From positions 1 to 64,000 of the forward strand of contig NZ_WVRE01000003.1 of assembly GCF_013111185.1 (NCBI RefSeq): a stretch of 64,000 nucleotides of DNA. Reading direction: 5' to 3'. Positions 17,466-45,117 of this stretch are shown piece after piece. A program made the position numbers and the translations under genes. This DNA comes from Ruegeria sp. HKCCD7303 (GTDB lineage: Bacteria; Pseudomonadota; Alphaproteobacteria; Rhodobacterales; Rhodobacteraceae). The notes under the pieces were generated by a model that was not told the origin of the DNA, searched no databases, and saw only the letters and a program-made list of their open reading frames with translations. How positions within the stretch are numbered: position 1 is the first letter of the stretch; each line of letters begins with the position of its first letter.

Positions 17466-18046
17466 GGCAAAGTCTCGCGTTTTGGCAGGCGTATGGGATC
17501 GGGGTCAGCGGTCATGGTTTTCATATCGACGATATACAGCCGATTGCGTTTGATCTTGAAGGGGGCAGGTCCTTCGAAATTCCAACCCCAAGCTTGGGCC
17601 AGAATGACCCGCATGATGCCGATATGGCAGACAGCCACCGCATCGTTTTGCAGAGCGGACAGCCAGGGGCGCAACCGGTTACGAACGTCAGCCGGACTTT
17701 CACCGTTTGGCGGGCGGAAATCCCAACCCCAATCTTCGATATGTTTGTAACCGCTTGTTGTGTCAGCGATCAGATCAACGCCGCGCTGACCCTCCCAATC
17801 GCCCCAGTTCATCTCGGTCAGCGCGTCTGACGTTTGCGGGCTGCGACCCGAGACGATTTGGGCGGTCTCATTGGCCCGTTGCAGCGGGCTGGACCAGATG
17901 TCAGCCTGTGCCCATTCGTGTGGCAGGCAGTAGCCTGACAGTTCTGAGCGCGCGTCATCGTCCAGGGAAATGTCGCTGCGGCCCTGTATCTGACCGGCGC
18001 GGTTCCAATGTGTGCGCCCGTGGCGAAGCAGCGCAAGCCTGGTCAT
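17462..18046 (-). CDS. Histidine phosphatase family protein
   Basis: This 194-residue protein belongs to the phosphoglycerate-mutase-like superfamily. It begins LALLRHGRTHWNRAGQIQGR with the catalytic His, has WSSPLQRANETAQ as the second conserved block and AVCHIGIMRVIL with a second His. The start overlaps the stop of the GT4 gene (ATGA). In this operon it may dephosphorylate a sugar phosphate or a lipid-linked intermediate, but that is inferred from context only. Confidence 0.85.
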   Translation of the reverse strand: MTRLALLRHGRTHWNRAGQIQGRSDISLDDDARSELSGYCLPHEWAQADIWSSPLQRANETAQIVSGRSPQTSDALTEMNWGDWEGQRGVDLIADTTSGYKHIEDWGWDFRPPNGESPADVRNRLRPWLSALQNDAVAVCHIGIMRVILAQAWGWNFEGPAPFKIKRNRLYIVDMKTMTADPDPIRLPKRETLP

Positions 18047-21577: not shown

Positions 21578-21630
21578 AGAATTGCCCGTCTTCTTGATCT
21601 CGATGCGAAATCCGCGCGTTCGCAAGCGTT

Positions 21631-21659: not shown

Positions 21660-21908
21660 AGGCAGAAATGCGACCCCGCAAATGTTCCAAGCATTGCGAT
21701 TTGGCAACATCATATTGAAGAATTAGAGACATATCGCACCAAAGCTTGGAAAGGATCGCAAAAGGACCAAAGAAATCACCAACATATGGGACGCCCGCAA
21801 CCTTTGCTAACGTCATATTCAATTTCCACTGGATTGGAAACAGGCGCAAATCGCTTGTGCGCCGAGAACACGCCAGAACATGTTCTTGAAACGGGGGCGT
21901 GCGAGTGT

Positions 21909-21937
21909 TTGAACTGCCCGCGACGCTTCTTTATTCT
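21909..21937 (+). promoter_or_regulatory. Promoter of the MscS-family gene
   Basis: TTGAAC (21909-21914) and TATTCT (21932-21937) are spaced 17 bp apart, and the start of transcription would lie about 25 bp before the ATG at 21971. Confidence 0.45.
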
Positions 21938-21970
21938 GCACTGCATCGGAAAAACTGGAAACAAGACCCT

Positions 21971-24352
21971 ATGAAACATACCTTTCTGGCCGCGCTCGTA
22001 TGGGCTTTGTGGTCTTTCGTTCTGGCATTTCCGGTCAGCGTCTCGGCGCAATCATCCTTGATTCCAGGTTACGGTGCCGGAACGGGCAGCACGTCCGAGC
22101 CCGCACCTGAAAGCGATCTTGCCGCTGCGATACGCGCCGCCAGCGAGGCGGGCGCAAGTGTGATTGTCATCGACAGCACCGGCCAGGTCGTAACTACAGC
22201 AGGCGACGCCGAGGCAAGCCCCACCCAAAACGGCGGTGGGTCGAACAACCCTATGAGCGACGGATCGCAACTGATGAAGGCGCAGGAGCGGTTCTCGAAG
22301 TTCCGTGAGTCCATGCAATCACGGCTCGAGGCGCTGCCTTATTCGGTGTTCGAAGTGCAGTATATTCTGCGTCAGACCAGCCCTGACGGGCGTATCCAGA
22401 CTTATGTCGAGGTCTTGGGCTGGAACATCCTCTTCCTGCTGTTGGGGCGTTGGCTGTCGATCGAGATTTACGGCAAACGCTTTGCTCGGCGTTGGGTTGT
22501 GGCCCGGGTCAAAGATGACCCTGTTGGATACCGCGAAAAGATGCCGTTCCTTGTCTTCCGCTTTTTGATGGGGATTGGTGGCACGATCTTTGCCATGCTT
22601 ATGGCGCTGATTGTTGGGTATCTGTTCTTCGGCGAGGCCGAGGACATCTCGATCCAGTTTACGGTTACAGCCATTTTCACCGCGTTCTTCTTGGCGCGTA
22701 CTGTATCCGATCTGTGGCGGATGGTTCTGTCTCCCTATCTGAGCCAATACCGCCTGCCGCCGTTTTCCGACAAGAACGCGCGCAGGCTGTACATCTGGGC
22801 GTCGGCTTTGGCGACCTACGACATCTCGGTTGTTTTGTTTGCAACATGGGTCGCGGATTTTGGCCTGAATTATAACGTTTATGCTATGGTTTATGGCGGG
22901 CTCACGATGCTTGGTGCGTTGGGCAATGTTCTGATGATCTTGTTCAATGCCCGGGCCATTTCGAATGCGATCCGGGGAGGGCGCGCATCAGATCAGGTAT
23001 CGTTTCTCTTGCGTTTCGTGTCCTTTGGCTGGGCGCCTGCTCTTATCGTTTATGTCGTGTTCAGTTGGTTCCGTTTGGCCGTTGATTTGGCGCTCGAGAA
23101 TCCGACGCCACTTCCGCTGATTGCAAGCAGTTACCTGATCTTCATGTCCGTCGTCATCGCCTATGGCGCGATGAACTATCTGCTGGAACGGTACTTTGAT
23201 CGAACCCGCAAGATCGACGAAATAAACGAAGAAGCCGCGGCTGGCGAAGACGACATCGTGCCGTTGGAAACACCTGAGGCCGAGCAGAGAAAGCAATACC
23301 TTCTCACCTACGAAGATCTGGCCCGTCGGGTGGCCGGAATTCTGGCCTTTGTGATCGGAGCTTATGCGCTTGTGGTCATCTGGTACCCGGACGCGGACTG
23401 GAGCCAGGACCTGCCAGTCGAACGTGCGCTGGATGTGATGGTCATCATCTTCATTGGCTATATCCTGTTCCACTTCTTCCGCATCTGGATAGACAGCAAG
23501 ATTGCCGAAGAGGTCGATGACGGCACAGAAGCGGAACTGGGCGATGAAGGCGGCGAGGGTGGGCAAAGCCGTCTGGCAACATTGCTGCCCCTGTTCCGGG
23601 GTGCAATTCTGGCTGTCGTCGTCGTCACGATTGTTCTGATTGTTCTGATGGAGCTGGGCATCAATGTCAGCCCGCTGTTTGCTGGCGCTGGTGTAGTAGG
23701 TTTGGCCGTTGGTTTTGGGTCGCAAACACTTGTGCGTGATATCTTTTCGGGCGCCTTTTTCCTGTTGGATGATGCGTTCCGCAAAGGCGAATATATCGAC
23801 ATCGGGGATGTAAAGGGCACGGTCGAGAAGATCTCGGTCCGGTCCATGCAACTGCGTCATCACCTAGGTGCGCTGAACACCATTCCCTTTGGTGAGATCA
23901 AGGTGCTGACCAACTATTCGCGCGATTGGGTTATCATGAAACTGCCCTTGCGCGTGACCTATGACACAGATGTCGAGAAAGTGCGCAAGCTGATCAAGAA
24001 ACTAGGCCAACAGCTGTTGACCGATCCTGTGATTGGCGACAATTTCATCCAGCCGCTGAAATCTCAGGGTGTGATCGAGATGCAGGATTCCGCGATGATC
24101 ATCCGGGTTAAGTTCATGACCAAACCGGGTGACCAGTGGCTGGTACGAAAGAAGGTTTATCAGGAAATTCGCGAACTCTTTGCGCGTGAGGGTATCAAGT
24201 TTGCCCACCGCGAGGTCACGGTGAGGCTGGCGGATGGAAAAGAAGCCGAGGATCTGACCCCGAAACAGCGTGATGCTGTAACTGGTGCAGTTCAGGCCGC
24301 AATTGACGAAGAATACCTGGACGATATCGGCCCCGGAGGCGACGACCGCTAG
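21971..24352 (+). CDS. Large MscS-family mechanosensitive ion channel
   Basis: This 793-residue protein has a signal peptide (MKHTFLAALVWALWSFVLA, cleaved near VSAQ), a periplasmic region with a low-complexity stretch, around nine to ten membrane helices between about 150 and 600, and the MscS pore and beta domain near 560-640. The pore segment has VGLAVGFGSQTLVRDIFSG and the beta domain DAFRKGEYIDIGDVKGTVEK. It should release solutes during hypo-osmotic shock. An acidic cytoplasmic loop lies at about 415-440. I used the ATG at 21971 because it begins the signal peptide. Confidence 0.92.
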   Translation: MKHTFLAALVWALWSFVLAFPVSVSAQSSLIPGYGAGTGSTSEPAPESDLAAAIRAASEAGASVIVIDSTGQVVTTAGDAEASPTQNGGGSNNPMSDGSQLMKAQERFSKFRESMQSRLEALPYSVFEVQYILRQTSPDGRIQTYVEVLGWNILFLLLGRWLSIEIYGKRFARRWVVARVKDDPVGYREKMPFLVFRFLMGIGGTIFAMLMALIVGYLFFGEAEDISIQFTVTAIFTAFFLARTVSDLWRMVLSPYLSQYRLPPFSDKNARRLYIWASALATYDISVVLFATWVADFGLNYNVYAMVYGGLTMLGALGNVLMILFNARAISNAIRGGRASDQVSFLLRFVSFGWAPALIVYVVFSWFRLAVDLALENPTPLPLIASSYLIFMSVVIAYGAMNYLLERYFDRTRKIDEINEEAAAGEDDIVPLETPEAEQRKQYLLTYEDLARRVAGILAFVIGAYALVVIWYPDADWSQDLPVERALDVMVIIFIGYILFHFFRIWIDSKIAEEVDDGTEAELGDEGGEGGQSRLATLLPLFRGAILAVVVVTIVLIVLMELGINVSPLFAGAGVVGLAVGFGSQTLVRDIFSGAFFLLDDAFRKGEYIDIGDVKGTVEKISVRSMQLRHHLGALNTIPFGEIKVLTNYSRDWVIMKLPLRVTYDTDVEKVRKLIKKLGQQLLTDPVIGDNFIQPLKSQGVIEMQDSAMIIRVKFMTKPGDQWLVRKKVYQEIRELFAREGIKFAHREVTVRLADGKEAEDLTPKQRDAVTGAVQAAIDEEYLDDIGPGGDDR

Positions 24353-24439: not shown

Positions 24440-25795
24440 TCAATTGGCGTTCAAGGGCCAAATGGGCTGTGATGTGCCCAATTTCGATGCAGGCAAATCC
24501 CAGTGCATTGATGCCTCGCCGACTTTAAGCGCAGGTTTGAGCCGATGACCGGGCCCCCAGCCAGATGCTTCGGTTTCCGTGTTGTAGTCTTTGGGTGTCG
24601 GATTGATCGGTGCTGCTTCGGTATCGTCCTTGCCAAGGACAGCCAGAAGTTCAGCTGTGCGGGCAAGGGACAGGTGGGCGTGCATGATGGAACTGCCCGA
24701 TGCGGCCTCTGAAAGGGCGGACAGAACAGCGGCCGCCATCAAATACCCTGTTGCGTGATCAAGGGCCTGAACCGGCAGGGGGGTAGGTTTGTCCGCCTGC
24801 GCCCAGCCCATTCCTGTATGGGCGATGCCCGCGCTCATCTGCACAAGGCTGTCAAAACCGCGCCGGGTGGACCATGGCCCCTGCCAGCCATAGGCATCCA
24901 GAGTGACCTCGATCCGGTTCGGAGCCAATTCGTCACGTTTGGCGCGCGTCAGGCCCAAAACATCCAATGCGCCCGGTCGATACCCGTGCACAAACACATC
25001 CGCTTGTGACAGCAGCTCTTGCAGCCGCTTCATGCCATCGTTTGTTTTCAGGTCCAGATAGGCGCAGTGCTTTCCCAGTGAGATGTCAGGGATCACCCCC
25101 GGTTCATCCCAATCAGGTGGGTCGATGCGCAGAACCTCGGCGCCGAAACCAGCCAGCGTGCGGGTCGAGACCGGACCGGCCAGAACACGTGTCAGGTCAA
25201 GTACGCGTAGTCCCGCCAGGGGTCGTTCGGCAGTTGCCTGCGGCCTGTCGCGTAGTTTGACATAGCGCGGCCCTTGCCAACCGATCAGCGGATCGCGTGA
25301 CACGGCGCGGCCTTGCGGATGTTCCAGCCACTCGGTTCGACTGCGCATGGCAGCGGCAACGCCACCTTCCGCCACGACGGCAGTTTCCAGATCCGCTATG
25401 GACCATGACTTAACGGCAGTTGCCACGGCCTCGCGATCAGGCGGAGAACCAAGAACCTTCAGCGCAGCCGCTCGGTGGCGAGTTAAGTTGGTGTGCAACC
25501 TGATCCAGCCGTCCGAGGCTTTATAGTCGCCTGCGACCGCATCCCACAGGCTTGGCATGTCCCAACCGTCTGGTTTGAAAGAATAGCCGAACCAAAGGGA
25601 TGCCAGCCGGTGATCGACCGTGATTTCAGGTTTACCCGAGGACAAGTTTAGCGCTTGCATCAACCGGGCCATTTCGTGACCTACCGCCGCAAAGCTGGCT
25701 GTGGCCAATTCAGAAACGGCAAAAGCGCTGGGCAGCGCGCCTTCACCAGTTCTGCGATAGCTGTCCGCAGCAGGAAGGGTGGCCAGAAGGCTCAT
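24440..25795 (-). CDS. Class III (CaiB/BaiF) CoA-transferase with rearranged domain order
   Basis: This 451-residue protein has the family N-terminal block LAGLRVLDLTRVLAGPVSTR only at about residues 194-213, then LDLKTNDGMKRLQELL, VFVHGYRPGALDVLG and the catalytic Asp region QALDHATGYLMAAA. The first 180 residues (with SDGWIRLHTNLTRHRAAALK and RSRTEWLEHPQGRAV) instead resemble the part that normally comes last in these enzymes. The C-terminus stops early. It therefore looks like a permuted or fused version. It overlaps the upstream permease gene by 4 bp. It presumably activates or exchanges the CoA ester of the substrate imported by the ABC system. This is inference. Confidence 0.85.
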   Translation of the reverse strand: MSLLATLPAADSYRRTGEGALPSAFAVSELATASFAAVGHEMARLMQALNLSSGKPEITVDHRLASLWFGYSFKPDGWDMPSLWDAVAGDYKASDGWIRLHTNLTRHRAAALKVLGSPPDREAVATAVKSWSIADLETAVVAEGGVAAAMRSRTEWLEHPQGRAVSRDPLIGWQGPRYVKLRDRPQATAERPLAGLRVLDLTRVLAGPVSTRTLAGFGAEVLRIDPPDWDEPGVIPDISLGKHCAYLDLKTNDGMKRLQELLSQADVFVHGYRPGALDVLGLTRAKRDELAPNRIEVTLDAYGWQGPWSTRRGFDSLVQMSAGIAHTGMGWAQADKPTPLPVQALDHATGYLMAAAVLSALSEAASGSSIMHAHLSLARTAELLAVLGKDDTEAAPINPTPKDYNTETEASGWGPGHRLKPALKVGEASMHWDLPASKLGTSQPIWPLNAN

Positions 25796-26946
25796 TGCTG
25801 ATAGGGGTCCAGGCTGTCGCGCAGCCCGTCACCGAGGAAGTTGAACGCCAGCACGACCACGATGATCGGCAGCATCGGGATGGCCGTCCACGGGTAGATT
25901 TCGATCGAGGCGAGGTTCTGTGCATCATTCAGCATGACACCCCAACTGACCGCAGGTGCCCGCAGACCCAACCCAAGGAAACTAAGCGCTGTTTCCCCCA
26001 GGATCATGGCTGGTATCGACAAGGTGGCTGATGCGATCAGGTGCGACATGAAGTTGGGTAGCAGATGCTTGCGGATCACGCGGCCCGAGCTCGCGCCCAT
26101 CATTTCAGCCGCGCGCACATATTCTTCCTCACGCAGTGACAAGAACTTGGCCCGGACTGAACGCGCAAGGCCAGGCCAGTCGAGTATGCCGAGGATAATC
26201 GAAATGATGAAGAAAACCGCCACAGGGCTCCAGTTCGATGGCACGGCGGCGGACAGCGCCAGCCAGAGTGGCAGTTCCGGCAACGAGCGCAGAATTTCGA
26301 TGACCCGGTTGATCGTCCAGTCGATGCGCCCGCCGAAATAGCCAGCCATCGAGCCGAACAAGATGCCCAGAAAGAACGACACAGAGATACCGATCAGGCC
26401 CACCGTCAACGAAAGCTGAGCGCCATAAAGGATACGACTGAAGATGTCGCGCCCCAGTCGGTCAGATCCCCACAGGAACAGGGTGGCGCCTTCGGGGGCG
26501 CAGAACAGATGAGTGTCGGACGGTATGAACCCGGCCAAACGGTACTCTGACCCTTCGCAAAAGAACCTGATGGGACGAGGGTCGTCTGTGTCGGGCACAA
26601 ATTTCCACTGGAATGTCTCAAGATCCGCTTCGGCGACGATCGGATACACATGGGGCCCGATGAACTCACCCTCATGGAACCAATTTACAGATTGCGGCGG
26701 GGCATAGAGGTGTTCGCCATTTCGCTCGTTCGGCCCATAGGGCGCAATAAACCCGGCAAAGGGCAACATCAGATAACACAACAGCAAGAAAATGCCAGAG
26801 ATCAGGCCAAGCTTGTGAGTGCGGAACTTGCGCCAGACCAGCACCCAATTTGGCGCGTCCAGATCGGCGCGTTCGAGCTGCTGAACAGACGCTTGCGGAT
26901 CAAATGGCGCGTCATCGACAAAGCGGTCATCGGGACGATCAGTCAT
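25792..26946 (-). CDS. Peptide/opine-type ABC transporter permease (DppC/YejE-like)
   Basis: This 384-residue inner-membrane permease has a first helix near 52-72, then about 100 periplasmic residues containing two cysteines (RFFCEGSEY and HLFCAPEGA), then the DppC signature WGSDRLGRDIFSRILYGAQL and permease core with the EAA loop EEYVRAAEMMGASSGRVIRK. The insertion before the DppC signature is longer than in typical DppC. It pairs with the YejB-like permease encoded upstream with a 4-bp overlap. Confidence 0.92.
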   Translation of the reverse strand: MTDRPDDRFVDDAPFDPQASVQQLERADLDAPNWVLVWRKFRTHKLGLISGIFLLLCYLMLPFAGFIAPYGPNERNGEHLYAPPQSVNWFHEGEFIGPHVYPIVAEADLETFQWKFVPDTDDPRPIRFFCEGSEYRLAGFIPSDTHLFCAPEGATLFLWGSDRLGRDIFSRILYGAQLSLTVGLIGISVSFFLGILFGSMAGYFGGRIDWTINRVIEILRSLPELPLWLALSAAVPSNWSPVAVFFIISIILGILDWPGLARSVRAKFLSLREEEYVRAAEMMGASSGRVIRKHLLPNFMSHLIASATLSIPAMILGETALSFLGLGLRAPAVSWGVMLNDAQNLASIEIYPWTAIPMLPIIVVVLAFNFLGDGLRDSLDPYQQ

Positions 26947-27971
26947 GCTTCGCGCCCCTCATAACGGATGCGCGGATCCAGCATCACCAACAGAATATCC
27001 GAGATCATCGTTCCGATCAGCGTGAGCAAAGCGACGAACATCAGGATGAAAGCCGACAGGAACTGATCCTGCGTTTTCAAAGCCGTCAGCAGGGTCGGGC
27101 CAATTGTTTGCAGGCCCAGAACAACGGAAACCAGAACTGAGCCTGATACCATTGACGGAAGCAGGTTGCCGATATCGGCCACGAAAGGGTTAAAGGCCAC
27201 ACGCAGTGGGTATTTGGTCAGCATCCGCGACGGGGCCATACCTTTGGCAATCGCAGTTTCGACATAAGGCTTGCCAAGCTCATCCAGCATATTTGCCCGC
27301 AGGCGCTGCATCATGGCCGAGGCCCCAGAGGTGCCGATCACGAAGGTTGGCACGATCAAATGAATGAGGATGGATTTCAGCTTGTCCCAACTCATCGGCT
27401 CGCCTTCGAACTTGGGATCCATAAGGCCACCAATAGGCAGGTTGAAATACTGGTGTCCGTAGTAGAACAAGATCAGAGCCAAAAGGAAGTTCGGTGTGGC
27501 CAGGCCCAAATATCCAACAAAAGCCGAGGTATAGTCGATCCACGTTCGCGACCGCGCCGCGGCGATAACACCAAGGGGCAAAGCTACGGCATAGACAAAC
27601 AAGATCGCAGCCAGATTGACGACCACCGTCAACCAAAGCGTATCGCCAACAATTTCTGATACGGGACGGTCAAATTCAAAAGACCAGCCATAGTTTCCTT
27701 GAATTAGACCGGAAAACCCGTGCGGTCCGGGCCAGAACCCCATCCAGATCAGGTATTGCTCCCAGATGGGACGATCCAAAGCGTATTCCGTGCGCAGAAA
27801 CTCGGCCTTGGCGACACCGGCAGATTGCCCCGAGGCCTGAAGCTCGGCGATCTGGTTGCTCAGGTAATCACCGGGCGGCAGGTTGATGATTGTGAAAATC
27901 AGGACCGAAACTACCAACAAAGTCAGCAGCATCGTAAAGAACCGATAGACCGCATAGCGCAGCATGACCAT
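26943..27971 (-). CDS. Peptide/opine-type ABC transporter permease (DppB/YejB-like)
   Basis: This 342-residue permease has an N-terminal helix at about 5-30 (LRYAVYRFFTMLLTLL), a periplasmic loop of some 90 residues with LDRPIWEQYL, then five helices with the EAA-type loop GKPYVETAIAKGMAPSRM. It forms the channel with the next gene. An ATG two codons downstream is an equally good start. Confidence 0.92.
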   Translation of the reverse strand: MVMLRYAVYRFFTMLLTLLVVSVLIFTIINLPPGDYLSNQIAELQASGQSAGVAKAEFLRTEYALDRPIWEQYLIWMGFWPGPHGFSGLIQGNYGWSFEFDRPVSEIVGDTLWLTVVVNLAAILFVYAVALPLGVIAAARSRTWIDYTSAFVGYLGLATPNFLLALILFYYGHQYFNLPIGGLMDPKFEGEPMSWDKLKSILIHLIVPTFVIGTSGASAMMQRLRANMLDELGKPYVETAIAKGMAPSRMLTKYPLRVAFNPFVADIGNLLPSMVSGSVLVSVVLGLQTIGPTLLTALKTQDQFLSAFILMFVALLTLIGTMISDILLVMLDPRIRYEGREA

Positions 27972-27985
27972 TTTGCTGCTCCTGC

Positions 27986-29899
27986 TCAGTCAGCGAAAAA
28001 GAACTCATCCGGGCGATGGATGCCGAAATGCGCGCCTGGTTCCCATGCCCACATAGCCTGTTCCGGTACGTTGCGCAGACGATTCGAGACAACCACCGGC
28101 TGCGGCGCGCCGTTCAGGATGCCAATTGCATACAGTTGGTCCGCATGAATTTTCAGCATTTCTGTCCAGGCTGCCGTGCGTTCTTCATCGCTTGTGGCGA
28201 TTTCCCAATCATGGGCCAGTTCCATCAGACGTTCGGCTTCGGGCATGTCAGGGGCTTCTCCAACTTCACCCTTAGTCTGGTAATATTGACCCCATTTGGG
28301 CCAAGCGAGGAACACTTGATCAGTGGGTGCCAGATAAGCTGGTGAAGTGTGAGCCTGCGGGATTCCGTCATCCCATCCAAACCAAACTGAAGCCATCGAG
28401 TTGCCCGCAAACACCCGGTTGCGCAGAATGTCGCGGTCCAGTGGACGCATCACCAGTTTGACCCCGATCTCGCGCCAGTTGTCGGTGACGATTTGCAGGG
28501 CATTCTCGACCTCTTGCCGTTCACCTGCGGTTTCGATGATCAACTCCATCGGGCGGCCATCGGGCAGTAAACGGATGCCGTTTTTATCGCGCTGCGTCAG
28601 ACCGGCTTCGTCCAGCAGGGCATTGGCCTGATCAATATCGTATTGCGCCCAGGCCTCGGCGTTCTCTTCATTGTAGAACGGCGAAGCGGGCAGCACTGAC
28701 ATCGCTGCGGGGCGCGCCAGTTTGAAATACAGAGCCTGATTGATGGTCTTGCGGTCGATCCCCAGCGACAAGGCACGTCGCACACGAACGTCGCGCAAAA
28801 CGTCGCGCCAGACGTCATCCGCAAAGTTAAGGTTCGGATAGATCGCAACCTGGGACGCTACGCCGGTTTTCCACAGCAGTGTTTTGTAACCGCCTTGGGC
28901 CTCACCTTTTTTAAGGATCGACGCGTCCCGGAAGGCCAATCCGCGACCTTGCAGATCGCTTTCACCTGCGTTGGTCTTGGCGGCGACAAGGCCGGGGGCA
29001 ACAATCTCCATCTCGACCACGTCGATATAGGGCAGCTGTACCCCGTTGCTGTCGATACGGTGGTAGTAGGGGTTGCGCACAAAGTTATGCCTGATCTTCT
29101 TGCCCGAGCTTGCGTTTAGCCAAGGTTGCAAAGTCGGCAGTTCGTGGTTGTCGAACTTGTAAAGGTTGTCCAGCTTGTTGTGCAACGCGGCCCAGCTTTT
29201 GACCCTTGCATCTTCAACCAGAAAGGCCAGCTCCTCGGGATCGGCGTATTTCTCGTGGTACTGTTTGAGGAAGGCGGACGGACGGTAAATAAATGGCGGT
29301 CGCGCATTGGCAAGCGTTTGCAGGAAGTCCGGGTTTGGATCCTCCCATTCGAAGATCACCGTGGTTTCATCAGGAAATGTAACCGTTGGTGATTTGCCTT
29401 CGACGATCAGAAACTCAAGCGGACCCGAAGGGCTGAGCAGTTCGTTATTGGCGACCTCTTCCCACCAATAGCGGAAGTCTTCTGACGTAAAGGGCGAGCC
29501 GTCTGACCATTTGTGCCCTTCCCGCAGTTTCAGCGTGAACTTGCGATTGTCTTCGTTCTCGAACGAGGCCAGCAGATCGGGCACAATTTCATAGTCCTGG
29601 TTAAACCCAACAAGGCGGGCATAGCCGTAGACGACCATTTGGCGGATATCTTTCGACCGTGTCACCATCGTACGCAGCGTACCACCTTGGGTGCCAAATT
29701 CACGGCCTTTAGCGGCCAGATCAACGATCAGCGGTTCCTTGGGAATGCGTTCTTCGATCGGCGGAAGGTTGCCTGCCTCTACTTCAGCGCTCCAGAAGGC
29801 GCTTTCCTGAGGAGTAGGAAAGGTTTCTGCCGTGGCGGGCAGCATTCCCGTCAGGGCCAGCATTGCGGCCAGGATCAGGGGGCGAGTGGTCTTAAACAT
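27986..29899 (-). CDS. Periplasmic substrate-binding protein, family 5 (YejA-like)
   Basis: This 637-residue protein starts with a signal peptide (cleavage near ATAE) and has SBP_bac_5 landmarks: PDLLASFENEDNRKFTLKLR, WSDGSPFTSEDFRYWWEEV, and VRRALSLGIDRKTINQALY. Long members of this cluster bind peptides, opines or glycoside-like compounds. The ligand here cannot be read from sequence. It overlaps the ATPase gene by 8 bp and is followed 15 bp later by the permease gene. Confidence 0.93.
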   Translation of the reverse strand: MFKTTRPLILAAMLALTGMLPATAETFPTPQESAFWSAEVEAGNLPPIEERIPKEPLIVDLAAKGREFGTQGGTLRTMVTRSKDIRQMVVYGYARLVGFNQDYEIVPDLLASFENEDNRKFTLKLREGHKWSDGSPFTSEDFRYWWEEVANNELLSPSGPLEFLIVEGKSPTVTFPDETTVIFEWEDPNPDFLQTLANARPPFIYRPSAFLKQYHEKYADPEELAFLVEDARVKSWAALHNKLDNLYKFDNHELPTLQPWLNASSGKKIRHNFVRNPYYHRIDSNGVQLPYIDVVEMEIVAPGLVAAKTNAGESDLQGRGLAFRDASILKKGEAQGGYKTLLWKTGVASQVAIYPNLNFADDVWRDVLRDVRVRRALSLGIDRKTINQALYFKLARPAAMSVLPASPFYNEENAEAWAQYDIDQANALLDEAGLTQRDKNGIRLLPDGRPMELIIETAGERQEVENALQIVTDNWREIGVKLVMRPLDRDILRNRVFAGNSMASVWFGWDDGIPQAHTSPAYLAPTDQVFLAWPKWGQYYQTKGEVGEAPDMPEAERLMELAHDWEIATSDEERTAAWTEMLKIHADQLYAIGILNGAPQPVVVSNRLRNVPEQAMWAWEPGAHFGIHRPDEFFFAD

Positions 29900-31664
29900 G
29901 GCAACGTACCTTATGGCCCGGTTCCAATTCCACCAATGAAGGTATCACGGTGTCCGAGAAACGGAAGGCTTCTTCCCAACTGTCCGGTGCGCCGGCGCCC
30001 AATGAAACCATTTGCAGGTCAATTGGACGGTTGATGTCGGGTTCGGGTTGAGCGGCAATCAGCGCCTTGGTGTAAGGGTGACGCGGATTGTAGAAAAGCG
30101 TTTCGGGCGGTGCCTGTTCGACAATCAGGCCGCGCCGCATAACGGCAACTTCGTCGGCAATCCGGGCGACAACGGCCAGATCGTGCGAGATAAACAGATA
30201 GGACAGGTTCAGGCTGTCCTGAAGGTTCTCCAGCAAGGTCAGGATTTGTTCCTGAACCGAGACATCCAGAGCCGATGTGGGTTCGTCACAGACAATCAGT
30301 TGCGGGTCCAACATCATGGCACGGGCCACAGAAAGGCGCTGCCGCTGCCCGCCGGAAAACGCGTGGGGATAGCGTTTCAGCATGTCTTCTGTCAAACCGA
30401 CACGTTGCAGCATCTCGGCTGCTTTGTCGCGCTGTTCCGCTGAGGTGCCGATCTTGTGGATTTCCAACGGTTCGGTCATCGCGTCCTGAATGCGCATACG
30501 CGGACTGAGCGAGCTATAGGGGTCCTGAAAGACCATTTGTGCCTTTCGCTGAAACGCCGTGCGCTGGGCGCGCGTCATGCTGTGCACCGTGATTGGGTCG
30601 ACGTCAGGTGCAGTGCGGAACAGAACTTCGCCACCAGGGTCGGGCAATTCGGCACCCAATGCGATCCGGGCTGCTGTCGTCTTTCCCGATCCGCTTTCGC
30701 CAACAATAGCCAGCGTTTTGCCGCGTGCAAGGTTCAGGTCGACGCCGCGACAGGCGTAGATTGCGGTGTCGGCTTGCCACCCCTTGCTGGACCGCATGGT
30801 GTAGGTCTTGGACACGTCCTTCATCTGAAGGATCAGATCTTCGTCCGGCATCGGAATACCTACGGCATCCTGGTCCGGAATTTCCGGCGCGGCATCGAAC
30901 AACTGTTTCGTATAAGGATGAGCCGGAGCGGTCAGGATTGGCGCGGCCGGGCCCGACTCCATGATGCGACCCTTGTGCATGACCACGACCTGTTCGGCCA
31001 TATTGGCGACGACACCCAGGTCATGGGTGACAAGGATCAGCGCCATGCCGGTCTCGCGCTGCAATTCCTTGATCAGCCCCAGCACCTGCGCCTGTGTGGT
31101 CACATCCAGCGCAGTGGTTGGTTCGTCTGCTATCAGCAGTTCGGGCTTGGATACCATCGCCATTGCGATCATGGCGCGCTGACGCATCCCGCCAGACAAT
31201 TCAAACGGGTACGAGTCATAAGCGCGCTGGGGGTCGGGGAAACCCACGCGATCAAACTGGCTCAGAACTTCTTTGCGGGCCTCGGCTTCTGAAAGACCAC
31301 GATGCAGCCACAAGACTTCGCTGACCTGATTGCCGATCTTGTGCAGGGGCGACAGTGAACGCATAGGTTCTTGAAAGATCATCGAAACCCGGTTGCCGCG
31401 TATGTTGCGCATCTCGCGTTCCGAGACCGATGTAAGCTCGCACGTACCTTTGGAATCGTTCAGGGTAATAGTGCCGCTGCGGATCTGTGCAGAGCGGGGT
31501 AGAATGCGCAAAGCGGCCCGACATGTGATTGTTTTGCCCGATCCGGATTCACCCACTAGTGCAAGCGTCTGACCGGCCTCGACGTCGAAGTTCACATCCG
31601 TGACCACGGAATTGCCCGTACCAAAGCCAATGCTCAGGTTTCTGACGGACAACAACGCGTTCAT
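29892..31664 (-). CDS. Double-NBD ABC transporter ATPase (YejF/DppDF-like)
   Basis: This 590-residue protein is two ATPase domains in tandem. Domain 1 has GESGSGKT, the signature LSGGMRQRAMIA and Walker B LLIADEPTTALD. Domain 2 has GESGSGKT, FSGGQRQRLSVA and LIVCDEPTSALD, so both look active. It is the first gene of the operon, which then encodes the binding protein, two permeases and the CoA-transferase. Putting the ATPase first and the binding protein second is an uncommon order. A small hairpin sits immediately before the start codon. Confidence 0.94.
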   Translation of the reverse strand: MNALLSVRNLSIGFGTGNSVVTDVNFDVEAGQTLALVGESGSGKTITCRAALRILPRSAQIRSGTITLNDSKGTCELTSVSEREMRNIRGNRVSMIFQEPMRSLSPLHKIGNQVSEVLWLHRGLSEAEARKEVLSQFDRVGFPDPQRAYDSYPFELSGGMRQRAMIAMAMVSKPELLIADEPTTALDVTTQAQVLGLIKELQRETGMALILVTHDLGVVANMAEQVVVMHKGRIMESGPAAPILTAPAHPYTKQLFDAAPEIPDQDAVGIPMPDEDLILQMKDVSKTYTMRSSKGWQADTAIYACRGVDLNLARGKTLAIVGESGSGKTTAARIALGAELPDPGGEVLFRTAPDVDPITVHSMTRAQRTAFQRKAQMVFQDPYSSLSPRMRIQDAMTEPLEIHKIGTSAEQRDKAAEMLQRVGLTEDMLKRYPHAFSGGQRQRLSVARAMMLDPQLIVCDEPTSALDVSVQEQILTLLENLQDSLNLSYLFISHDLAVVARIADEVAVMRRGLIVEQAPPETLFYNPRHPYTKALIAAQPEPDINRPIDLQMVSLGAGAPDSWEEAFRFSDTVIPSLVELEPGHKVRCHV

Positions 31665-31681: not shown

Positions 31682-31891
31682 TTGACCAAAAGGTGACATC
31701 GGTTAATTCAACTCCCCGTGATTTTTTGCTTAGTGTCGCGCGGTTCCGCCCGACTAGTCAAACCCGTTCTTGGGCTGAAATGTCGCGGAATTGTGAAACT
31801 TTGGGCTTCATCGCTACACAAAGTCTTGAGAATTTGTCATCTAGGGCCGCATCGGGCGCATCTATGCTTCCGAATAGTATCAAGGAGATAT

Positions 31892-32395
31892 GTGCTGGTG
31901 TCCGAGAATCAAAGCCGCCTGGATCTGTTCATCGACCGCATGGTGTCGCAACGCGCGTGTCTGGATTTTGCGATTGCGCATACGGCGGGCATGAAAGGCC
32001 CGGTTTTCGAGTTGGGTTTGGGCAATGGCCGTACCTATCACCATCTTGTGCAGCATATGGATGACCGCCCGGTTTATGTGTTCGAACGCGCGGTGGCTTC
32101 TCACCCAGACTCAACCCCACCCGAGGATCGGGTGATTCTGGGGGATGTGCGCGATACGTTGCCTGCATCCGTTGACCGGTTTGGCGCAACAGCGAGCCTT
32201 ATCCACGCAGACTTGGGCGGGCATAACCGTGAGAAGAACGATAAATTTGCTCGGTTCGTCTCGCCGCTGATTGAACCTTTGCTGGCGCAGGGCGGTCTGA
32301 TGGTGTCCAGTGATCGCATGTATTTCGACGGGCTGACAGAAATGCCGCTGCCCGAAGGTGCCGTTGAAGGGCGCTGTTTCATTTACCGCCGTTGA
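31892..32395 (+). CDS. Small class I SAM-dependent methyltransferase (paralogue of the 15084-15560 gene)
   Basis: This roughly 167-residue protein carries FELGLGNGRTYHHL and HPDSTPP, the same two signatures as the methyltransferase at the end of the glycan operon, then LIHADLGGHN. There is no in-frame ATG at the expected place. GTG at 31892 or 31898 follows AAGGAG (31882-31887) by 4 or 10 bases. A much longer reading frame upstream has no family resemblance. It precedes a GST gene by 18 bp and may be co-transcribed. The substrate is unknown. Confidence 0.78.
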   Translation: MLVSENQSRLDLFIDRMVSQRACLDFAIAHTAGMKGPVFELGLGNGRTYHHLVQHMDDRPVYVFERAVASHPDSTPPEDRVILGDVRDTLPASVDRFGATASLIHADLGGHNREKNDKFARFVSPLIEPLLAQGGLMVSSDRMYFDGLTEMPLPEGAVEGRCFIYRR

Positions 32396-39875: not shown

Positions 39876-40268
39876 TCAGGCTGCTGCAAAGCTAACCCAC
39901 GCCCAGACCATCGCCACATATGTCAGGTTGTGCATCAACTGATCCAACCCGGCCGCGCGCCAAAAGGCGGCTTGCGAAGGTTCCAGCTGGTTTTTGTCAG
40001 AATAGCTGGCTTTGACGAAATCGATGTTGAAGTGGATTATCCATTCAAGCGCTGCGACAATCAGAATAAACGCCAAAGGTGCGCCAAAAACCAAGAACAC
40101 AATAATAGAGCCTGCAACATGTACTGCTGCATGCTGTGCACGTCCCCAATGAAAATACTCACCGCGTCCAGAGAGCATTTTCGGTGTCTGGAGGTAAAAG
40201 TCAGCGAACATGTGCTTTACAAGCATTAAGCAAAGCATAACGAACACTGCGCCAAAACTGGCAGCCAA
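39876..40268 (-). CDS. DUF3307-like integral membrane protein
   Basis: This 130-residue protein has three to four membrane helices. The N-terminal helix ends in VKHMFADFYLQTPKM, a pattern with Asp and Gln inside the membrane edge that is typical of DUF3307, followed by HWGRAQHAAVHVAGSIIVFL. Function is unknown. Members occur near phage-like or regulator genes in other bacteria, but nothing similar is visible here. Confidence 0.7.
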   Translation of the reverse strand: MAASFGAVFVMLCLMLVKHMFADFYLQTPKMLSGRGEYFHWGRAQHAAVHVAGSIIVFLVFGAPLAFILIVAALEWIIHFNIDFVKASYSDKNQLEPSQAAFWRAAGLDQLMHNLTYVAMVWAWVSFAAA

Positions 40269-40528
40269 AAGAACCCTCCCGATCTCGTCCTGCTGACCAC
40301 TCTAGGCAATTAGATGGGCATACGTAAATGAACTAGTTCACAAAAGCTTAAGAATTCGCACAATCGGGAAAAAAATTGCCAATTATGTCTGGATGGCATT
40401 AGAGTCATGCTGTTGAATTTGCGTGGATAACATCTGAACCGCGTCGTCGGTCAGCAGCAGGGGCAGGTTCCATAGAACGCACGATTTTCCGCTTTATCTG
40501 GAAGTACTCCAAACGCGACCAGCTGATC

Positions 40529-43480
40529 TTGTTGGCTGTGACAGCGACATTGTTCCCGCTGCTTTACCTGACGTTGGAACTGCCTAAGCGCATTATCAAT
40601 GATGCGATTGGTGCACCCAACCCAGAAGTAACCATCTGGGGCTATACGATGTCGCAGACGAATTTTCTGGTTATTCTATGCTTTGCGTTTTTAGCGGCCG
40701 TATTGGGGCATGGCCTGATGAAAATGCGCATCAACACCATGAAAGGTGTGCTGAGCGAGCGGATGCTGCGGCGCTTTCGGTATCAGTTGATCAGCCGTGC
40801 GTTGCGATTTCCACAACCCTATTTCGAACGCGTCAGCCAGGGCGAGATGGTGTCGATGATCACCGCCGAAAGCGAGCCGATGGGCGGGTTGATGGGGGAT
40901 GCGATCAGCCAGCCTGTATTGCAGGCGGGTCAGATGATCACGATCCTTGCCTTTTTGTTCCTGCAAAGCTTTTGGTTCGGCTTGGCCGCGGTGGCACTGA
41001 TTCCGGTACAAGCCTGGCTGATCCCCAAACTGCAACGCCAAATCAACCTGCTGAACAAAAAGCGTATTCAAGAAGTGCGGGTGCTTGCGGCCCAAATCGG
41101 TGAAAACGCTGCAGGGGCTTCGACGCTGCGCGCCAATGGTGGCTGGCGTTATCGCCGGGCGATGATCTCTGATCAGTTGGGGCGGTTGTTCGGCATCCGG
41201 TTCGAGATCTACCAGAAGAAGTTTTTTATGAAATTCATAAACAACTTCATCTCTCAATTGACGCCATTCATGTTCTATCTGATCGGCGGTCTGCTGGTGC
41301 TGCAAGGCTCGGTCTCGCTGGGGGCGCTGGTTGCAGCGCTTGCGGCCTACAAAGATCTGAGCTCACCTTGGAAAGAGCTTTTGACCTACTACAACCAGAC
41401 ACAGGACATGTCTTTGCGTTGGGACGTGGTGATTGACCGCTTTGCGCCCAGCGGAATGCAGGACGAAGCCTTGTTTGAGGGCGAAGCTGACGCACGCCCC
41501 AATCTGAACGATGATATTGTGCTGGATCATGTTTCGGTTCGGGACATGGACGGCAATCAGGTGTTGGACGATCTGAACCTCAGCTTTCCGGGCGGCAAGA
41601 CGATCGGCATTTCCGCCCCCAGCGAGGAAGACCGCCGTGCCATCGCCGAACTTTTGACGCGTGAAATCTTGCCCAGTGGTGGCAAGGTGCGTATCGGGGA
41701 TGTGAACCTGGCCGAACTGCATCAGGGCGTTGTGGCCTCACGTATAGGTTATGCTACGTCCCGCCCTGTGATGTTTCAGGGCACTTTGGGCGACAACGTA
41801 ATGATGCCTATGCGGTTCAGACCGTTGTCAGAGAGCGCAGATGACCCCGATTTTCGCGAAACCCTGCGGGCAGGAAACAGTTCCGACCCGTTCAAGGTGG
41901 ATTGGCTTGATCCGTCTTTGGCAGGGCTTCCGGACGCGGCGGCCTTGCGCGATTGGTGGTTGCAGCTGATCGACGGGATGGGGTCTGGTGCGGCCCTGTT
42001 CCAGCGTGGTGCAGAACAAAGCTTTAACGCCGCTGAGCATTGCGAACTGGCTCAGAAACTGGTCGAGTTGCGTCCAATTGTGCGCAAAGCCGTTCAGGAC
42101 GCGGGTCTGGAACAACAGGCGTTGATCTTCGACCGCAATCTGTACAACCCCGCCCTGCCTGTTGCCGAGAATCTTCTGTTTGCCACGCCCTGCGTTCCGG
42201 TGACACACGCTTTGCTGGTAGAACAGACGGTCTTTCTGGGCCAGCTGCGAGAGTTGGGGCTGGATGAAACGCTGATCGCATTGACCCGCGACGTGATCGA
42301 GATGTTGCGCCAGATTTTTGGTTTGGACGGTACGGATCACCCGTTGTTCCGCAAGCTCGGGTTGGATGCAAAGACCTATGAGGCTGCGGTCGAACTGGTT
42401 GAGCAGACCCGCAAAGAAGGCTCGGCCGGGTTGGACGATGCACAGTTGGCAAATATGCTGGCTGTGCCGTTTGTTATTTCGGCGGAACAGATCGGCCCAG
42501 CTTTCACCGATGAGCTGAAGGACCGGATTCTCGAACTTCGACACAGCCACTCTGAGAAGCTGATGGAACGTCTGAAGGATGTTTTTGTTCCGCTGGACCC
42601 GGAGGTATACGCACCCGGTCTGACAGTCATGGAAAACGCGCTTTTTGGTAAAGTCAGTCAGATTGGCGGGGCCCGTTCCGATGAGGCGCGCAAGCTGATT
42701 GTCGATGTGTTGGCCGAAAACGGTGCGCGGCCATTGGTGACGGAACTGATTTATGACGTGCCGGTGGCCTTGGGTGGTCAGAACCTGCCCGCGGTGTTTG
42801 CAGAGCCACTTGCGTTTACGCGCGCAACGATCAAGAAACCGGACGTCCTGATCTTGGAAAACGCCTTGGCCAGTTACGACATGAAAACGCAGGTGGCCGT
42901 CTACAAAAAGCTGCGTGAGTTGCTGCCGGAGACTACTGTCATCTACTTGAACGATCAGTTTGAAAACCCCGATGTATTCGACATGTTCGTTGAAATCAGG
43001 CAAGGTCGTGTGGTCTCGGACGGAGGGCCGGTAGACGTGGAGGAAGACAGCGCAGCATCGGCAGATCTGGCGCGGAAATTGCGTGCTCTGGAACAGACCC
43101 CGTTGTTCTCTGGTCTGGACCGACGTCAGTTGCGCCTGTTGGCCTTTGGTGCTCGCTGGTTTGACGCCGAGCCCGGGCAAGTGGTTTTCCTAAAAGACGA
43201 CCAGCCAACCGATGGTGCCTATGTTGTGCTTGAGGGTGAGGCCGGATTGTACCTGCCGCAGGATCAAGGGCCGGATCAGTTGATCACCACCGTTGGACCG
43301 GGCGCTTTGGTCGGAGAGCTGGGCCTGATCCGCAAAGAGCCGCGCGCGTTGAGTATGGTGGCAGAAACTCAGCTGTCTTGTCTGCGGATTGGCGAAGAGG
43401 AATTCCTTGCCGTCGTCGAGAATGACGCTGCAACCGCCTTCAAGCTGCTTCAGGTGATTGCAGGCTACGTTTCAAGCTAG
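40529..43480 (+). CDS. ABC-exporter-like protein with degenerate, enlarged ATPase domain and cNMP-binding domain
   Basis: This protein of about 983-1002 residues has a six-helix exporter-type membrane domain (to about 320). A nucleotide-binding region of about 510 residues follows, twice the normal size, and a Crp-like cyclic-nucleotide-binding domain ends it (about 857-983, with GDxx-type LVGELGLIRKEPRALSMVAE). All ATPase motifs are changed. Walker A is ISAPSEEDRRA with no GKS/T (about 357). Walker B is LILENA, with D to E and catalytic E to N (about 774). The signature is LGGQN (748), and the H-loop His is Asn in YLNDQF (806). The standard start codon is TTG 40529, but conserved-looking sequence (ERTIFRFIWKYSKRDQ) continues 57 bp upstream in frame to an ATA. 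Confidence 0.85.
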   Translation: MLAVTATLFPLLYLTLELPKRIINDAIGAPNPEVTIWGYTMSQTNFLVILCFAFLAAVLGHGLMKMRINTMKGVLSERMLRRFRYQLISRALRFPQPYFERVSQGEMVSMITAESEPMGGLMGDAISQPVLQAGQMITILAFLFLQSFWFGLAAVALIPVQAWLIPKLQRQINLLNKKRIQEVRVLAAQIGENAAGASTLRANGGWRYRRAMISDQLGRLFGIRFEIYQKKFFMKFINNFISQLTPFMFYLIGGLLVLQGSVSLGALVAALAAYKDLSSPWKELLTYYNQTQDMSLRWDVVIDRFAPSGMQDEALFEGEADARPNLNDDIVLDHVSVRDMDGNQVLDDLNLSFPGGKTIGISAPSEEDRRAIAELLTREILPSGGKVRIGDVNLAELHQGVVASRIGYATSRPVMFQGTLGDNVMMPMRFRPLSESADDPDFRETLRAGNSSDPFKVDWLDPSLAGLPDAAALRDWWLQLIDGMGSGAALFQRGAEQSFNAAEHCELAQKLVELRPIVRKAVQDAGLEQQALIFDRNLYNPALPVAENLLFATPCVPVTHALLVEQTVFLGQLRELGLDETLIALTRDVIEMLRQIFGLDGTDHPLFRKLGLDAKTYEAAVELVEQTRKEGSAGLDDAQLANMLAVPFVISAEQIGPAFTDELKDRILELRHSHSEKLMERLKDVFVPLDPEVYAPGLTVMENALFGKVSQIGGARSDEARKLIVDVLAENGARPLVTELIYDVPVALGGQNLPAVFAEPLAFTRATIKKPDVLILENALASYDMKTQVAVYKKLRELLPETTVIYLNDQFENPDVFDMFVEIRQGRVVSDGGPVDVEEDSAASADLARKLRALEQTPLFSGLDRRQLRLLAFGARWFDAEPGQVVFLKDDQPTDGAYVVLEGEAGLYLPQDQGPDQLITTVGPGALVGELGLIRKEPRALSMVAETQLSCLRIGEEEFLAVVENDAATAFKLLQVIAGYVSS

Positions 43481-43484
43481 GGGA

Positions 43485-43826
43485 TCAGGTGTCTTCTGCG
43501 CAGAACAGTTTGTAGAGCAGGCCGATCACTTGTTCCGTGTTCCCATCACGCAAGGAATAGTAGACCGTCTTGCCCTCTCTGCGGGTTGAGACAAGCCCTT
43601 CTTCACGCAGGCGGGCCAGCATCTGGCTAACAGCGGCTTGACGCAGCTCAAGCAGATTCTCAAGCTGACCCACGGATTTCTCTCCGTCCCCAAGGTGGCA
43701 CAGGATCATCAGCCGTCCCTCATGGGCCAGTGTTTTAAGGTAGGCAGCCGCGCGGGCGGCATTGTCTTTCATGTCCGGCAGAGTGTCCGTGCTGCGCGCC
43801 TGAGGATCGGTTTCTTTGAGTTCCAC
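43485..43826 (-). CDS. ArsR-family regulator with BigR/SqrR-type cysteine pair
   Basis: This winged-helix protein of about 113 residues (GTG at 43826; ATG at 43772 is an alternative) contains KTLAHEGRLMILCHLGDGEK and QAAVSQMLARLREEGLVSTR, typical of the BigR/SqrR subgroup. The two cysteines, C43 in ILCHL and C109 in YKLFC, are 66 residues apart, like the persulfide-sensing pair of SqrR (C41 and C107). It may therefore sense reactive sulfur or redox state rather than metal. No sulfur oxidation genes are adjacent. It ends 4 bp from the convergent ABC-like gene. Confidence 0.85.
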   Translation of the reverse strand: MELKETDPQARSTDTLPDMKDNAARAAAYLKTLAHEGRLMILCHLGDGEKSVGQLENLLELRQAAVSQMLARLREEGLVSTRREGKTVYYSLRDGNTEQVIGLLYKLFCAEDT

Positions 43827-43884
43827 GTTGTGACCGTTGTTCCGCTTTTTATCGGAACAATATGCCTTAAACACGCTGGTGTTG

Positions 43885-45117
43885 TCACCCCTCGGTTGCC
43901 GGTGCGCCGCCTTGAAAAGCGTTGCCGTTGGCGTAATCGCAGGGGTCCTCCTGCATTTGCAAGTGCAGGTCGCGGCCCTCATAGGGATGCGCGCGGGCCA
44001 GGGCTTCGTCAACGTCGATCCCAAGGCCCGGCGCTGTTGGCGCGGTTACGAACCCGTCCTCGACCCGAACAGACCCTTTGATCAGTTGGTCATGGAACGG
44101 TGTTTCGATGCTTTCCAGCAACAGCAAATTAGGGATCGACGCAGCCAGATGGATATTAGCCGCCCATTCCACCGGCCCTGCATAGAGATGCGGTGCCATC
44201 TGAGCGTTGAAGACCTCAGCCATTGCGGCAACTTTCTTCATCTCCCAGATCCCGCCCGCGCGTCCCAACGCCGGTTGCAGGATTTCCGCGGCCCCGGCGC
44301 GCAAAACGGCACCGAATTCGGCCTTGGTCGTCATGCGTTCTCCGGTGGCGACGGGGATGCGGACATTGCGGGCGACGCGAGCCATGTCTTCGATCATGTC
44401 CGGCGGCGTGGGTTCTTCGAACCAAAGCGGTTGATAAGGTTCCAACGCTTGCCCCAACCGAATGGCCCCGGCGGTGTTGAATTGACCATGCGTGCCGAAT
44501 AGCAGATCGGCCTTGTCGCCCACGGCTTCGCGGATCGCCTTGCAGAAAGCGACCGACATGGAAATGTCGCTCATGGCGGGCATGTGGCCTCCCCGGATCG
44601 TATAAGGGCCTGCCGGGTCGAATTTGACGGCAGTATAGCCACGCTGCACCATTGCAGCAGCCGTTTCGCCGGCCTGTTCAGGAGAAGTCCAGAAATCAGT
44701 CAGATTATGCTGGGGCAGGGGATAAAGATACGTATAGGCACGGATTCGGGCGTTCATTTTTCCACCCAGCAAAGCATAGACGGGGCGGTCGCGATCCTTG
44801 CCCAGAATATCCCAGCAGGCGATCTCCAACCCTGAAAACGCGCCCATTACGGTCAGGTCTGGTCGCTGGGTGAAGCCGCTGGAATATGCACGGCGGAACA
44901 TCAGCTCGATGTTTTCGGGGTTTTCACCCTGCATATGCCGTTCGAACACGTCCTGAATGACATGGCGCATCGCCTCTGGCCCGACGGAGGAGGCATAGCA
45001 TTCGCCCCAGCCGGTGATGCCAGTATCGGTCGTCACCTTAACCAATACCCAATATCGCCCACCCCAACCCGGCGCCGGTGGGGCGGTGACGATAATGTCG
45101 AGATCCTGCAGTTTCAT
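43885..45117 (-). CDS. Enolase-superfamily protein (mandelate racemase/galactonate dehydratase-like), metal ligand altered
   Basis: This 410-residue protein has a capping domain with VTTDTGITGWGECYASS and a barrel with KFDPAGPY, WFEEPTPPD, VATGERMT and MAPHLYAGPVEWA. Aligned by eye with E. coli DgoD, the second and third metal ligands (Glu in WFEEP and GER) and the catalytic His in APH are present. The first metal ligand Asp of the DFHG motif is Gly (LLFGTHGQ), and the Asp of the His-Asp dyad (QPD) is Ala (QPALG). The reaction is therefore uncertain. It lies beside an alcohol dehydrogenase in a possible sugar-acid or hydroxy-acid pathway. Confidence 0.85.
   Translation of the reverse strand: MKLQDLDIIVTAPPAPGWGGRYWVLVKVTTDTGITGWGECYASSVGPEAMRHVIQDVFERHMQGENPENIELMFRRAYSSGFTQRPDLTVMGAFSGLEIACWDILGKDRDRPVYALLGGKMNARIRAYTYLYPLPQHNLTDFWTSPEQAGETAAAMVQRGYTAVKFDPAGPYTIRGGHMPAMSDISMSVAFCKAIREAVGDKADLLFGTHGQFNTAGAIRLGQALEPYQPLWFEEPTPPDMIEDMARVARNVRIPVATGERMTTKAEFGAVLRAGAAEILQPALGRAGGIWEMKKVAAMAEVFNAQMAPHLYAGPVEWAANIHLAASIPNLLLLESIETPFHDQLIKGSVRVEDGFVTAPTAPGLGIDVDEALARAHPYEGRDLHLQMQEDPCDYANGNAFQGGAPATEG

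What the first reader, a model, noticed from the sequence alone, without database searches (positions are those of the whole stretch)
40403..43480. ABC-exporter-like protein with a catalytically dead, double-sized ATPase domain and a cNMP sensor
Exporter-type membrane helices are joined to a nucleotide-binding region of about 510 residues. In it, Walker A has no GKS/T (APSEEDRRA), Walker B is LILENA (catalytic Glu to Asn), and the H-loop His is Asn. The region holds three repeated segments (LGDNVMMPM near 421, VAENLLFATP near 544, VMENALFGK near 697) that each look like the stretch after a Q-loop, as if built by internal duplication. A Crp-like cNMP-binding domain follows. The protein probably does not hydrolyse ATP and may act as a signal-gated channel, scaffold or receptor. 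A BigR/SqrR-type regulator lies convergently next door.
Basis: partly seen in the sequence, partly recalled or inferred. Interest (0 to 1): 0.8.

Follow-up and report, generated by a model that had tools for sequence, protein, structure and literature searches.

The report
ATP-dead ABC exporter with cNMP sensor
A marine bacterium carries a widespread, little-described transporter-like membrane protein that has lost its ATP-burning site but kept a cyclic-nucleotide sensor, lies near a set of sugar-polymer genes, and appears to be translated from the very weak start codon AUA.

Summary
The protein (1002 aa, 40472-43480 +) has exporter-type membrane helices, one NBD fold and a C-terminal cNMP domain. 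Walker A, catalytic Glu, signature and His-switch are lost under purifying selection. The "double-sized" domain is a single NBD with a roughly 270-290-residue insertion; segments 2 and 3 are duplicates, segment 1 shares only a core motif. The family occurs in 96 of 289 sampled genomes of the class. In 23 of 29 distant loci the cNMP domain is a separate adjacent gene; here it is fused. The cNMP pocket is intact.

Two things were missed. (1) 14 of 20 distant loci adjoin a glycan cluster (glycosyltransferases, histidine phosphatase, mostly also a deacetylase-like gene); the same cluster lies in this window at 15.6-21.6 kb. (2) The gene apparently starts at AUA/AUC (78 of 80 orthologues read); Ruegeria infC likewise has AUA, while the paralogues have AUG.

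Best reading: an ATP-hydrolysis-free, cyclic-nucleotide-responsive membrane component of an envelope-glycan system, translated at a low, probably IF3-limited rate. Function, initiation at AUA and IF3 control are inferred, not shown.

The parts
40472..43480 (+). pseudo-ABC exporter gene with fused cNMP domain, 1002 aa plus stop
40472..40474 (+). ATA, proposed start codon
40472..41446 (+). exporter-type transmembrane domain (about residues 1-325)
   Evidence: Pfam ABC_membrane; model
41498..41812 (+). first part of the NBD fold (about residues 343-447), holding the lost Walker A and the Q-loop region
41615..41641 (+). Walker A position, APSEEDRRA (382-390)
41813..42613 (+). helical insertion between Q-loop region and ABC-alpha part (about residues 448-714; borders approximate)
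42038..42271 (+). repeat segment 2 (523-600)
42503..42727 (+). repeat segment 3 (678-752)
42614..43024 (+). second part of the NBD fold (about residues 715-851): ABC-alpha, lost signature, Walker B, His-switch region
43169..43426 (+). cNMP-binding domain (Pfam stretch)
39876..40268 (-). divergent DUF3307 membrane protein gene, found in 79 of 80 orthologue loci
43485..44024 (-). convergent ArsR-family regulator (local neighbour, probably not part of the system)
15571..21625 (-). linked glycan cluster: deacetylase-like (no Pfam hit at 0.001), GT28-like, histidine phosphatase, GT4, GT4, GT28-like
21899..24352 (+). MscS-family channel gene; conserved in 7 of 9 relatives, 0 of 20 distant loci
25792..31664 (-). 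Opp-type ABC importer genes (two permeases, binding protein, fused ATPases), also near the gene in S. meliloti and Azospirillum
31718..32395 (+). PF12692 methyltransferase gene; homologue in 10 of 20 distant loci

Best explanation
The protein is a pseudo-ABC exporter: an exporter scaffold whose nucleotide-binding domain no longer hydrolyses Mg-ATP and which works with a cyclic-nucleotide-binding domain, fused here and a neighbouring gene in most distant relatives read. I propose that the cNMP domain reads cAMP, cGMP or a similar ligand and, through the degenerate NBD and its insertion, sets the conformation of the membrane helices, so controlling passage, assembly or activity of an envelope glycan made by the linked glycosyltransferase cluster. 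In Ruegeria and allied roseobacters the amount of protein is held low by an AUA/AUC start codon, probably under IF3 control, as infC in the same genomes appears to be. Shown from sequence: loss of ATPase motifs, purifying selection, one NBD fold with an insertion, intact cNMP pocket, fusion versus adjacent gene, linkage to the glycan cluster, conserved AUA/AUC at the start position. Inferred: dimerisation, ligand, gating, glycan role, initiation at AUA, IF3 control.
For: Degenerate ATP site conserved in 80 aligned sequences and both Mg-ligands mostly lost in 27 distant loci. dN/dS at most 0.145 in the 32 of 42 domain-by-pair cells where it could be estimated. One NBD fold. cNMP pocket: Gly948 and Arg958 80/80, Glu949 79/80; Arg in 20 of 20 distant loci. 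cNMP part separate and adjacent in 23 of 29 distant loci, in the same frame in 6. Glycan cluster adjacent in 14 of 20 distant loci (12 with all but the weakest members), in Sulfitobacter, partly in S. meliloti, 19 kb away in the window and upstream in 7 of 9 relatives. 35 class III cyclase matches in the own genome. Start codon: 62 ATA, 16 ATC, 2 ATG of 80 read; 27 of 29 distant loci ATG or GTG there; infC ATA in 18 of 18 Ruegeria read. TMD-only relatives exist.
Against: No functional data. 6 of 20 distant loci lack the glycosyltransferases, and in 79 of 80 orthologue loci they are not within about 6 kb. Walker B Asp is kept in 48 of 80; in distant members Walker A Lys is kept in 18 of 27 and the catalytic Glu in 14 of 27, and the S. 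meliloti member still scores as ABC_tran (36.5 bits), so some ATP binding is possible. The Shine-Dalgarno scan matched only 25 of 79. Two orthologues use ATG, so AUG is tolerated.
Confidence: 0.5

Rival explanations
1. It is the dead half of a heterodimeric ABC exporter and is powered by an active partner half encoded elsewhere.
For: Its nearest solved relatives by fold include heterodimeric exporters such as TM287/288 and TmrAB; degenerate halves are common there (recalled).
Against: No exporter half stood out beside the gene in the neighbourhoods read, where the recurrent ABC genes are an Opp-type importer, but no systematic search for a partner was made. Both own-genome copies, window and L002, are degenerate.
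Confidence: 0.2
2. It still binds ATP, without Mg-dependent hydrolysis or with hydrolysis by unusual residues, and nucleotide binding is part of its cycle.
For: Walker A Lys kept in 18 of 27 distant loci and catalytic Glu in 14 of 27; Walker B Asp in 48 of 80; NBD fold kept.
Against: In the window branch Gly-rich loop, Lys, Ser/Thr and signature are gone.
Confidence: 0.12
3. It is a receptor or scaffold that moves nothing, and its link to the glycan genes is historical rather than functional.
For: A TMD-only relative without NBD was found in 23 of 289 genomes, all among the 96 with the pseudo-ABC gene (hand-listed; phylogeny not corrected). The glycan genes are not adjacent in most roseobacters.
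Against: Adjacency in 14 of 20 distant loci, in Sulfitobacter, and 19 kb linkage in 7 of 9 relatives is hard to explain by chance.
Confidence: 0.18

Closest known systems
ABC exporters of the MsbA / PCAT1 / TM287-288 / TmrAB type
   Same: ABC_membrane domain; overall fold and one NBD
   Different: ATPase motifs lost, insertion of about 270-290 residues in the NBD, C-terminal cNMP domain
HetC of Nostoc PCC 7120 (PMC10986499, passages read)
   Same: ABC exporter joined to a cNMP-type domain that is needed for function
   Different: HetC has an N-terminal cNMP domain that binds ppGpp, a C39 peptidase and an ATPase residue that is essential in vivo
Sinorhizobium meliloti MsbA2 (PMC3687685, PMC12239276, passages read)
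   Same: MsbA-like exporter next to glycosyltransferase genes
   Different: Different locus on pSymB (SMb21188 near 938 kb; this family at 841.7-845.0 kb); motifs of MsbA2 were not compared
Genes with conserved non-canonical starts: infC, Streptomyces sigR GTC (PMC5472188), S. aureus ccpN AUA (PMC13009471); passages read
   Same: Conserved start position with a non-canonical codon, missed by gene callers
   Different: New gene and clade; AUA and AUC interchange; IF3 effect not measured

Membership tests
ABC exporter | exporter-type transmembrane domain | tested here: met
   Pfam ABC_membrane 64 bits against cut-off 28
ABC exporter | NBD fold | tested here: met
active ABC ATPase | Walker A GxxGxGK[ST] | tested here: not met
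   APSEEDRRA; Arg at the Lys position 80/80
active ABC ATPase | catalytic Glu after Walker B and LSGGQ signature | tested here: not met
   Asn797 in the window; signature column replaced
cNMP-binding domain | domain profile and phosphate-binding cassette | tested here: met
   62.6 bits; Arg958 and Gly948 80/80, Glu949 79/80
cNMP-binding domain | binding of cAMP, cGMP or another ligand | not testable with these tools
   needs a binding assay
heterodimeric exporter with a degenerate half | an active partner half | tested here: inconclusive
   none noticed in the neighbourhoods read; genome-wide search not made
HetC-like PCAT | C39 peptidase domain | tested here: not met
   not among the Pfam hits at E <= 1
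gene with conserved non-AUG start | non-canonical codon conserved at the homologous start position, canonical in outgroups | tested here: met
   78 of 80 ATA/ATC; 27 of 29 distant loci ATG/GTG
gene with conserved non-AUG start | initiation at that codon and repression by IF3 | not testable with these tools
   needs N-terminal proteomics or reporter assays

The most novel reading that the evidence does not exclude
A class-wide lineage of ABC exporters has exchanged its fuel for a signal: Mg-ATP hydrolysis is gone and a cyclic-nucleotide module, first a separate partner and then fused, drives the conformational change that gates export or assembly of an envelope glycan. In roseobacters its dose is set by an IF3-sensitive AUA/AUC start that ties it to the translation machinery.
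Probability: 0.25. Interest if true: 0.9.

Novelty: new variant of a known kind. Interest (0 to 1): 0.7.

Why it matters
ABC proteins that act as regulators or channels are known mainly from animals, such as SUR and CFTR (recalled). A widespread bacterial family that has lost its ATPase motifs but kept a second-messenger pocket would be a tractable test of what an exporter can do without ATP, and could give the many nucleotide cyclases of these bacteria a membrane target. The AUA/AUC start adds a conserved natural case of very weak initiation outside infC and implies that the annotated start in Ruegeria sp. TM1040 is 17 codons too late.

Tried and rejected
Local error or decaying gene: rejected; motif losses are shared and dN/dS is at most 0.145 in the 32 of 42 cells that could be estimated (many dS values exceed 1, so ratios are rough; the nearest pair, L007, has dS 0.12-0.76 and ratios up to 0.059).

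Identity with S. meliloti MsbA2: rejected by map position (and PMC3687685 passages). SMb20813, called an msbA homologue in PMC10945364 (one passage), may be this gene; not verified, since the pSymB record carries no annotation. PMC6180224 (one passage) mentions SMb20811 only as a spontaneous variant.

R. pomeroyi proteogenomics (PMC3305630, passages): reports ATG, GTG and TTG starts only, for 486 proteins; it neither supports nor excludes AUA here.

Script faults: one search printed stale hhalign output; one search crashed; one search crashed after its main output; one search mislabelled rows that begin with ATG by one codon (labels such as GGC, CTC, CCC) and missed 2 of 53 rows, so only its ATA/ATC labels and topology are used; the regex failed on one Ruegeria infC locus (L155) and did not read most of the 11 non-Ruegeria loci. 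GT28a counts of 13 and 14 include weak cross-hits in L131 and L143; 12 are genuine. In one search the methyltransferase hits near 33% in six relatives are another gene, not the window's.

Full report
WHAT IS THERE. The window lies in a Ruegeria-like genome (the nearest named loci are Ruegeria). The frame is open from 40403 to the stop at 43478-43480; the conserved protein begins at 40472 and has 1002 residues. Pfam finds ABC_membrane (64 bits) and cNMP_binding (62.6 bits) and no ABC_tran at E <= 1. NCBIfam gives only partial matches to exporter models, in the rows shown all far below their cut-offs.

THE ATP SITE. In 80 aligned sequences (window, own paralogue L002, 78 of 80 fetched loci) the Walker A position reads like APSEEDRRA, with Arg at the Lys position in 80 of 80; the catalytic Glu position holds mainly N, S, Q, D, K and T, and the His-switch is not conserved. 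Against a fully dead site, Walker B Asp is D in 48 of 80 and E in 32. In 27 more distant loci the Walker A Ser/Thr is changed in 26 (D or E in 23) and Walker B Asp in 24, but Lys is kept in 18 (Arg in 9), the catalytic Glu in 14, and His at the switch column in 13. Loss of the Mg-ligands is thus nearly family-wide in what I read, and the window's branch has gone furthest. dN/dS is at most 0.145 in the 32 of 42 domain-by-pair cells that could be estimated.

FAMILY AND FUSION. A class-wide sample matched in 96 of 289 genomes (E <= 1e-20) and a phylum-wide sample in 22 of 299 (E <= 1e-40). Among 29 loci (L088-L116) the cNMP domain is in the same frame in 6 and a separate ORF directly downstream in 23. 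Azospirillum lipoferum has one 1048-aa gene. Annotated plasmid records shown call it "ABC transporter transmembrane domain-containing protein" or similar. Pocket residues: Arg958 and Gly948 80 of 80, Glu949 79 of 80; Arg in 20 of 20 and Glu in 19 of 20 distant loci. A paralogue at 52% identity is in the own genome, and all 19 Ruegeria genomes searched have at least two matches. A TMD-only relative without NBD (L003, next to a gene that looks like efp) is in 23 of 289 genomes by my hand list, all with the pseudo-ABC gene; shared descent may explain that.

THE GLYCAN CLUSTER. I read 20 of the 29 distant loci at 14-19 kb (chosen among the better matches). The two GT4 genes, the histidine phosphatase and GT28b are present in 14, GT28a genuinely in 12, the deacetylase-like gene in 12, the PF12692 methyltransferase in 10 and an Opp-type ATPase in 8; 6 lack the glycosyltransferases. 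Sulfitobacter dubius has the six genes directly upstream; S. meliloti has three glycosyltransferases and the Opp importer upstream and an FkbM-type methyltransferase downstream. In the window the six genes lie at 15571-21625, the Opp importer at 25792-31664 and the methyltransferase at 31718-32395. The six genes are also upstream in 7 of 9 relatives fetched (six Ruegeria and G388), not upstream of the G022 and G154 copies. Within about 6 kb of the gene they are found in at most 1 of 80 orthologue loci, whereas the divergent DUF3307 gene is in 79 of 80.

THE START CODON. The residue aligned with the initiator Met of the paralogue is ATA in 62, ATC in 16 and ATG in 2 of 80 orthologues read, window included; the 81st, L057, has ATA in a frame broken further on. 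ATA is 139 of 4111 Ile codons (3.4%) in the rest of these genes; 49 of 79 have no ATG, GTG or TTG between the upstream in-frame stop and this codon, 45 also no CTG. At the same place 27 of 29 distant loci have ATG or GTG, L088 ATC, L112 CTC; 8 of 8 paralogue loci fetched from Ruegeria and L002 have ATG. In a 51-row tree the AUA/AUC rows fall on one side of a supported branch (40 rows, 100/97) that also holds L039 and L044 with ATG; ATA and ATC interchange at least nine times (labels partly faulty), although ATA to ATG would be a single transition. infC was read in 18 of 19 Ruegeria genomes and has ATA in all 18, with no ATG, GTG or TTG upstream in 17. RefSeq starts the TM1040 gene at a TTG 17 codons inside. 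A Shine-Dalgarno scan matched 25 of 79, two of them the doubtful GATC. Precedents: sigR GTC repressed by IF3 (PMC5472188, passages) and S. aureus infC and ccpN AUA (PMC13009471, passages).

MECHANISM. The likeliest role is a ligand-responsive membrane component for an envelope glycan, without ATP hydrolysis. The own genome has 35 class III cyclase matches, so a ligand is probably made. HetC is the nearest described ABC exporter with a cNMP-type domain that I found, but its ATPase residue is essential and its ligand is ppGpp (PMC10986499, passages). Searches of the held open-access library showed no description of this family or its start codon; most subscription papers are not held.

VERDICT. 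Observation confirmed, interpretation partly supported: a conserved new variant of an ABC exporter, with a glycan linkage and an AUA/AUC start that are directly testable.

Noticed in passing
L151:1408-1998 (+) and 17 further Ruegeria infC loci: infC appears to start at ATA (ATA before ARRPHNAPP) in 18 of 18 Ruegeria loci read, with no canonical start upstream in 17.
   Followed up: partly
L003:1468-2409 (-): A TMD-only relative of the exporter domain with no NBD at all lies in the own genome beside an efp-like gene; such ORFs occur in 23 of 289 genomes by hand list.
   Followed up: partly
L002:4541-5425 (+): The ATG-start paralogue overlaps a CAAX-protease-type (Rce1-like) gene, found in 9 of 9 paralogue loci checked.
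   Followed up: no
L081: A record titled Nocardioides marinus carries a Leisingera-like copy; probably a mislabelled or contaminated assembly.
   Followed up: no
window 21899-24352 (+) and 24440-25795 (-): An MscS-family channel and a CoA-transferase family III gene lie between the glycan cluster and the Opp importer in 7 of 9 relatives but in none of 20 distant loci.
   Followed up: partly
L144:6001-6052: RefSeq start of the Ruegeria sp. TM1040 gene (TTG) is 17 codons downstream of the conserved ATA.
   Followed up: yes
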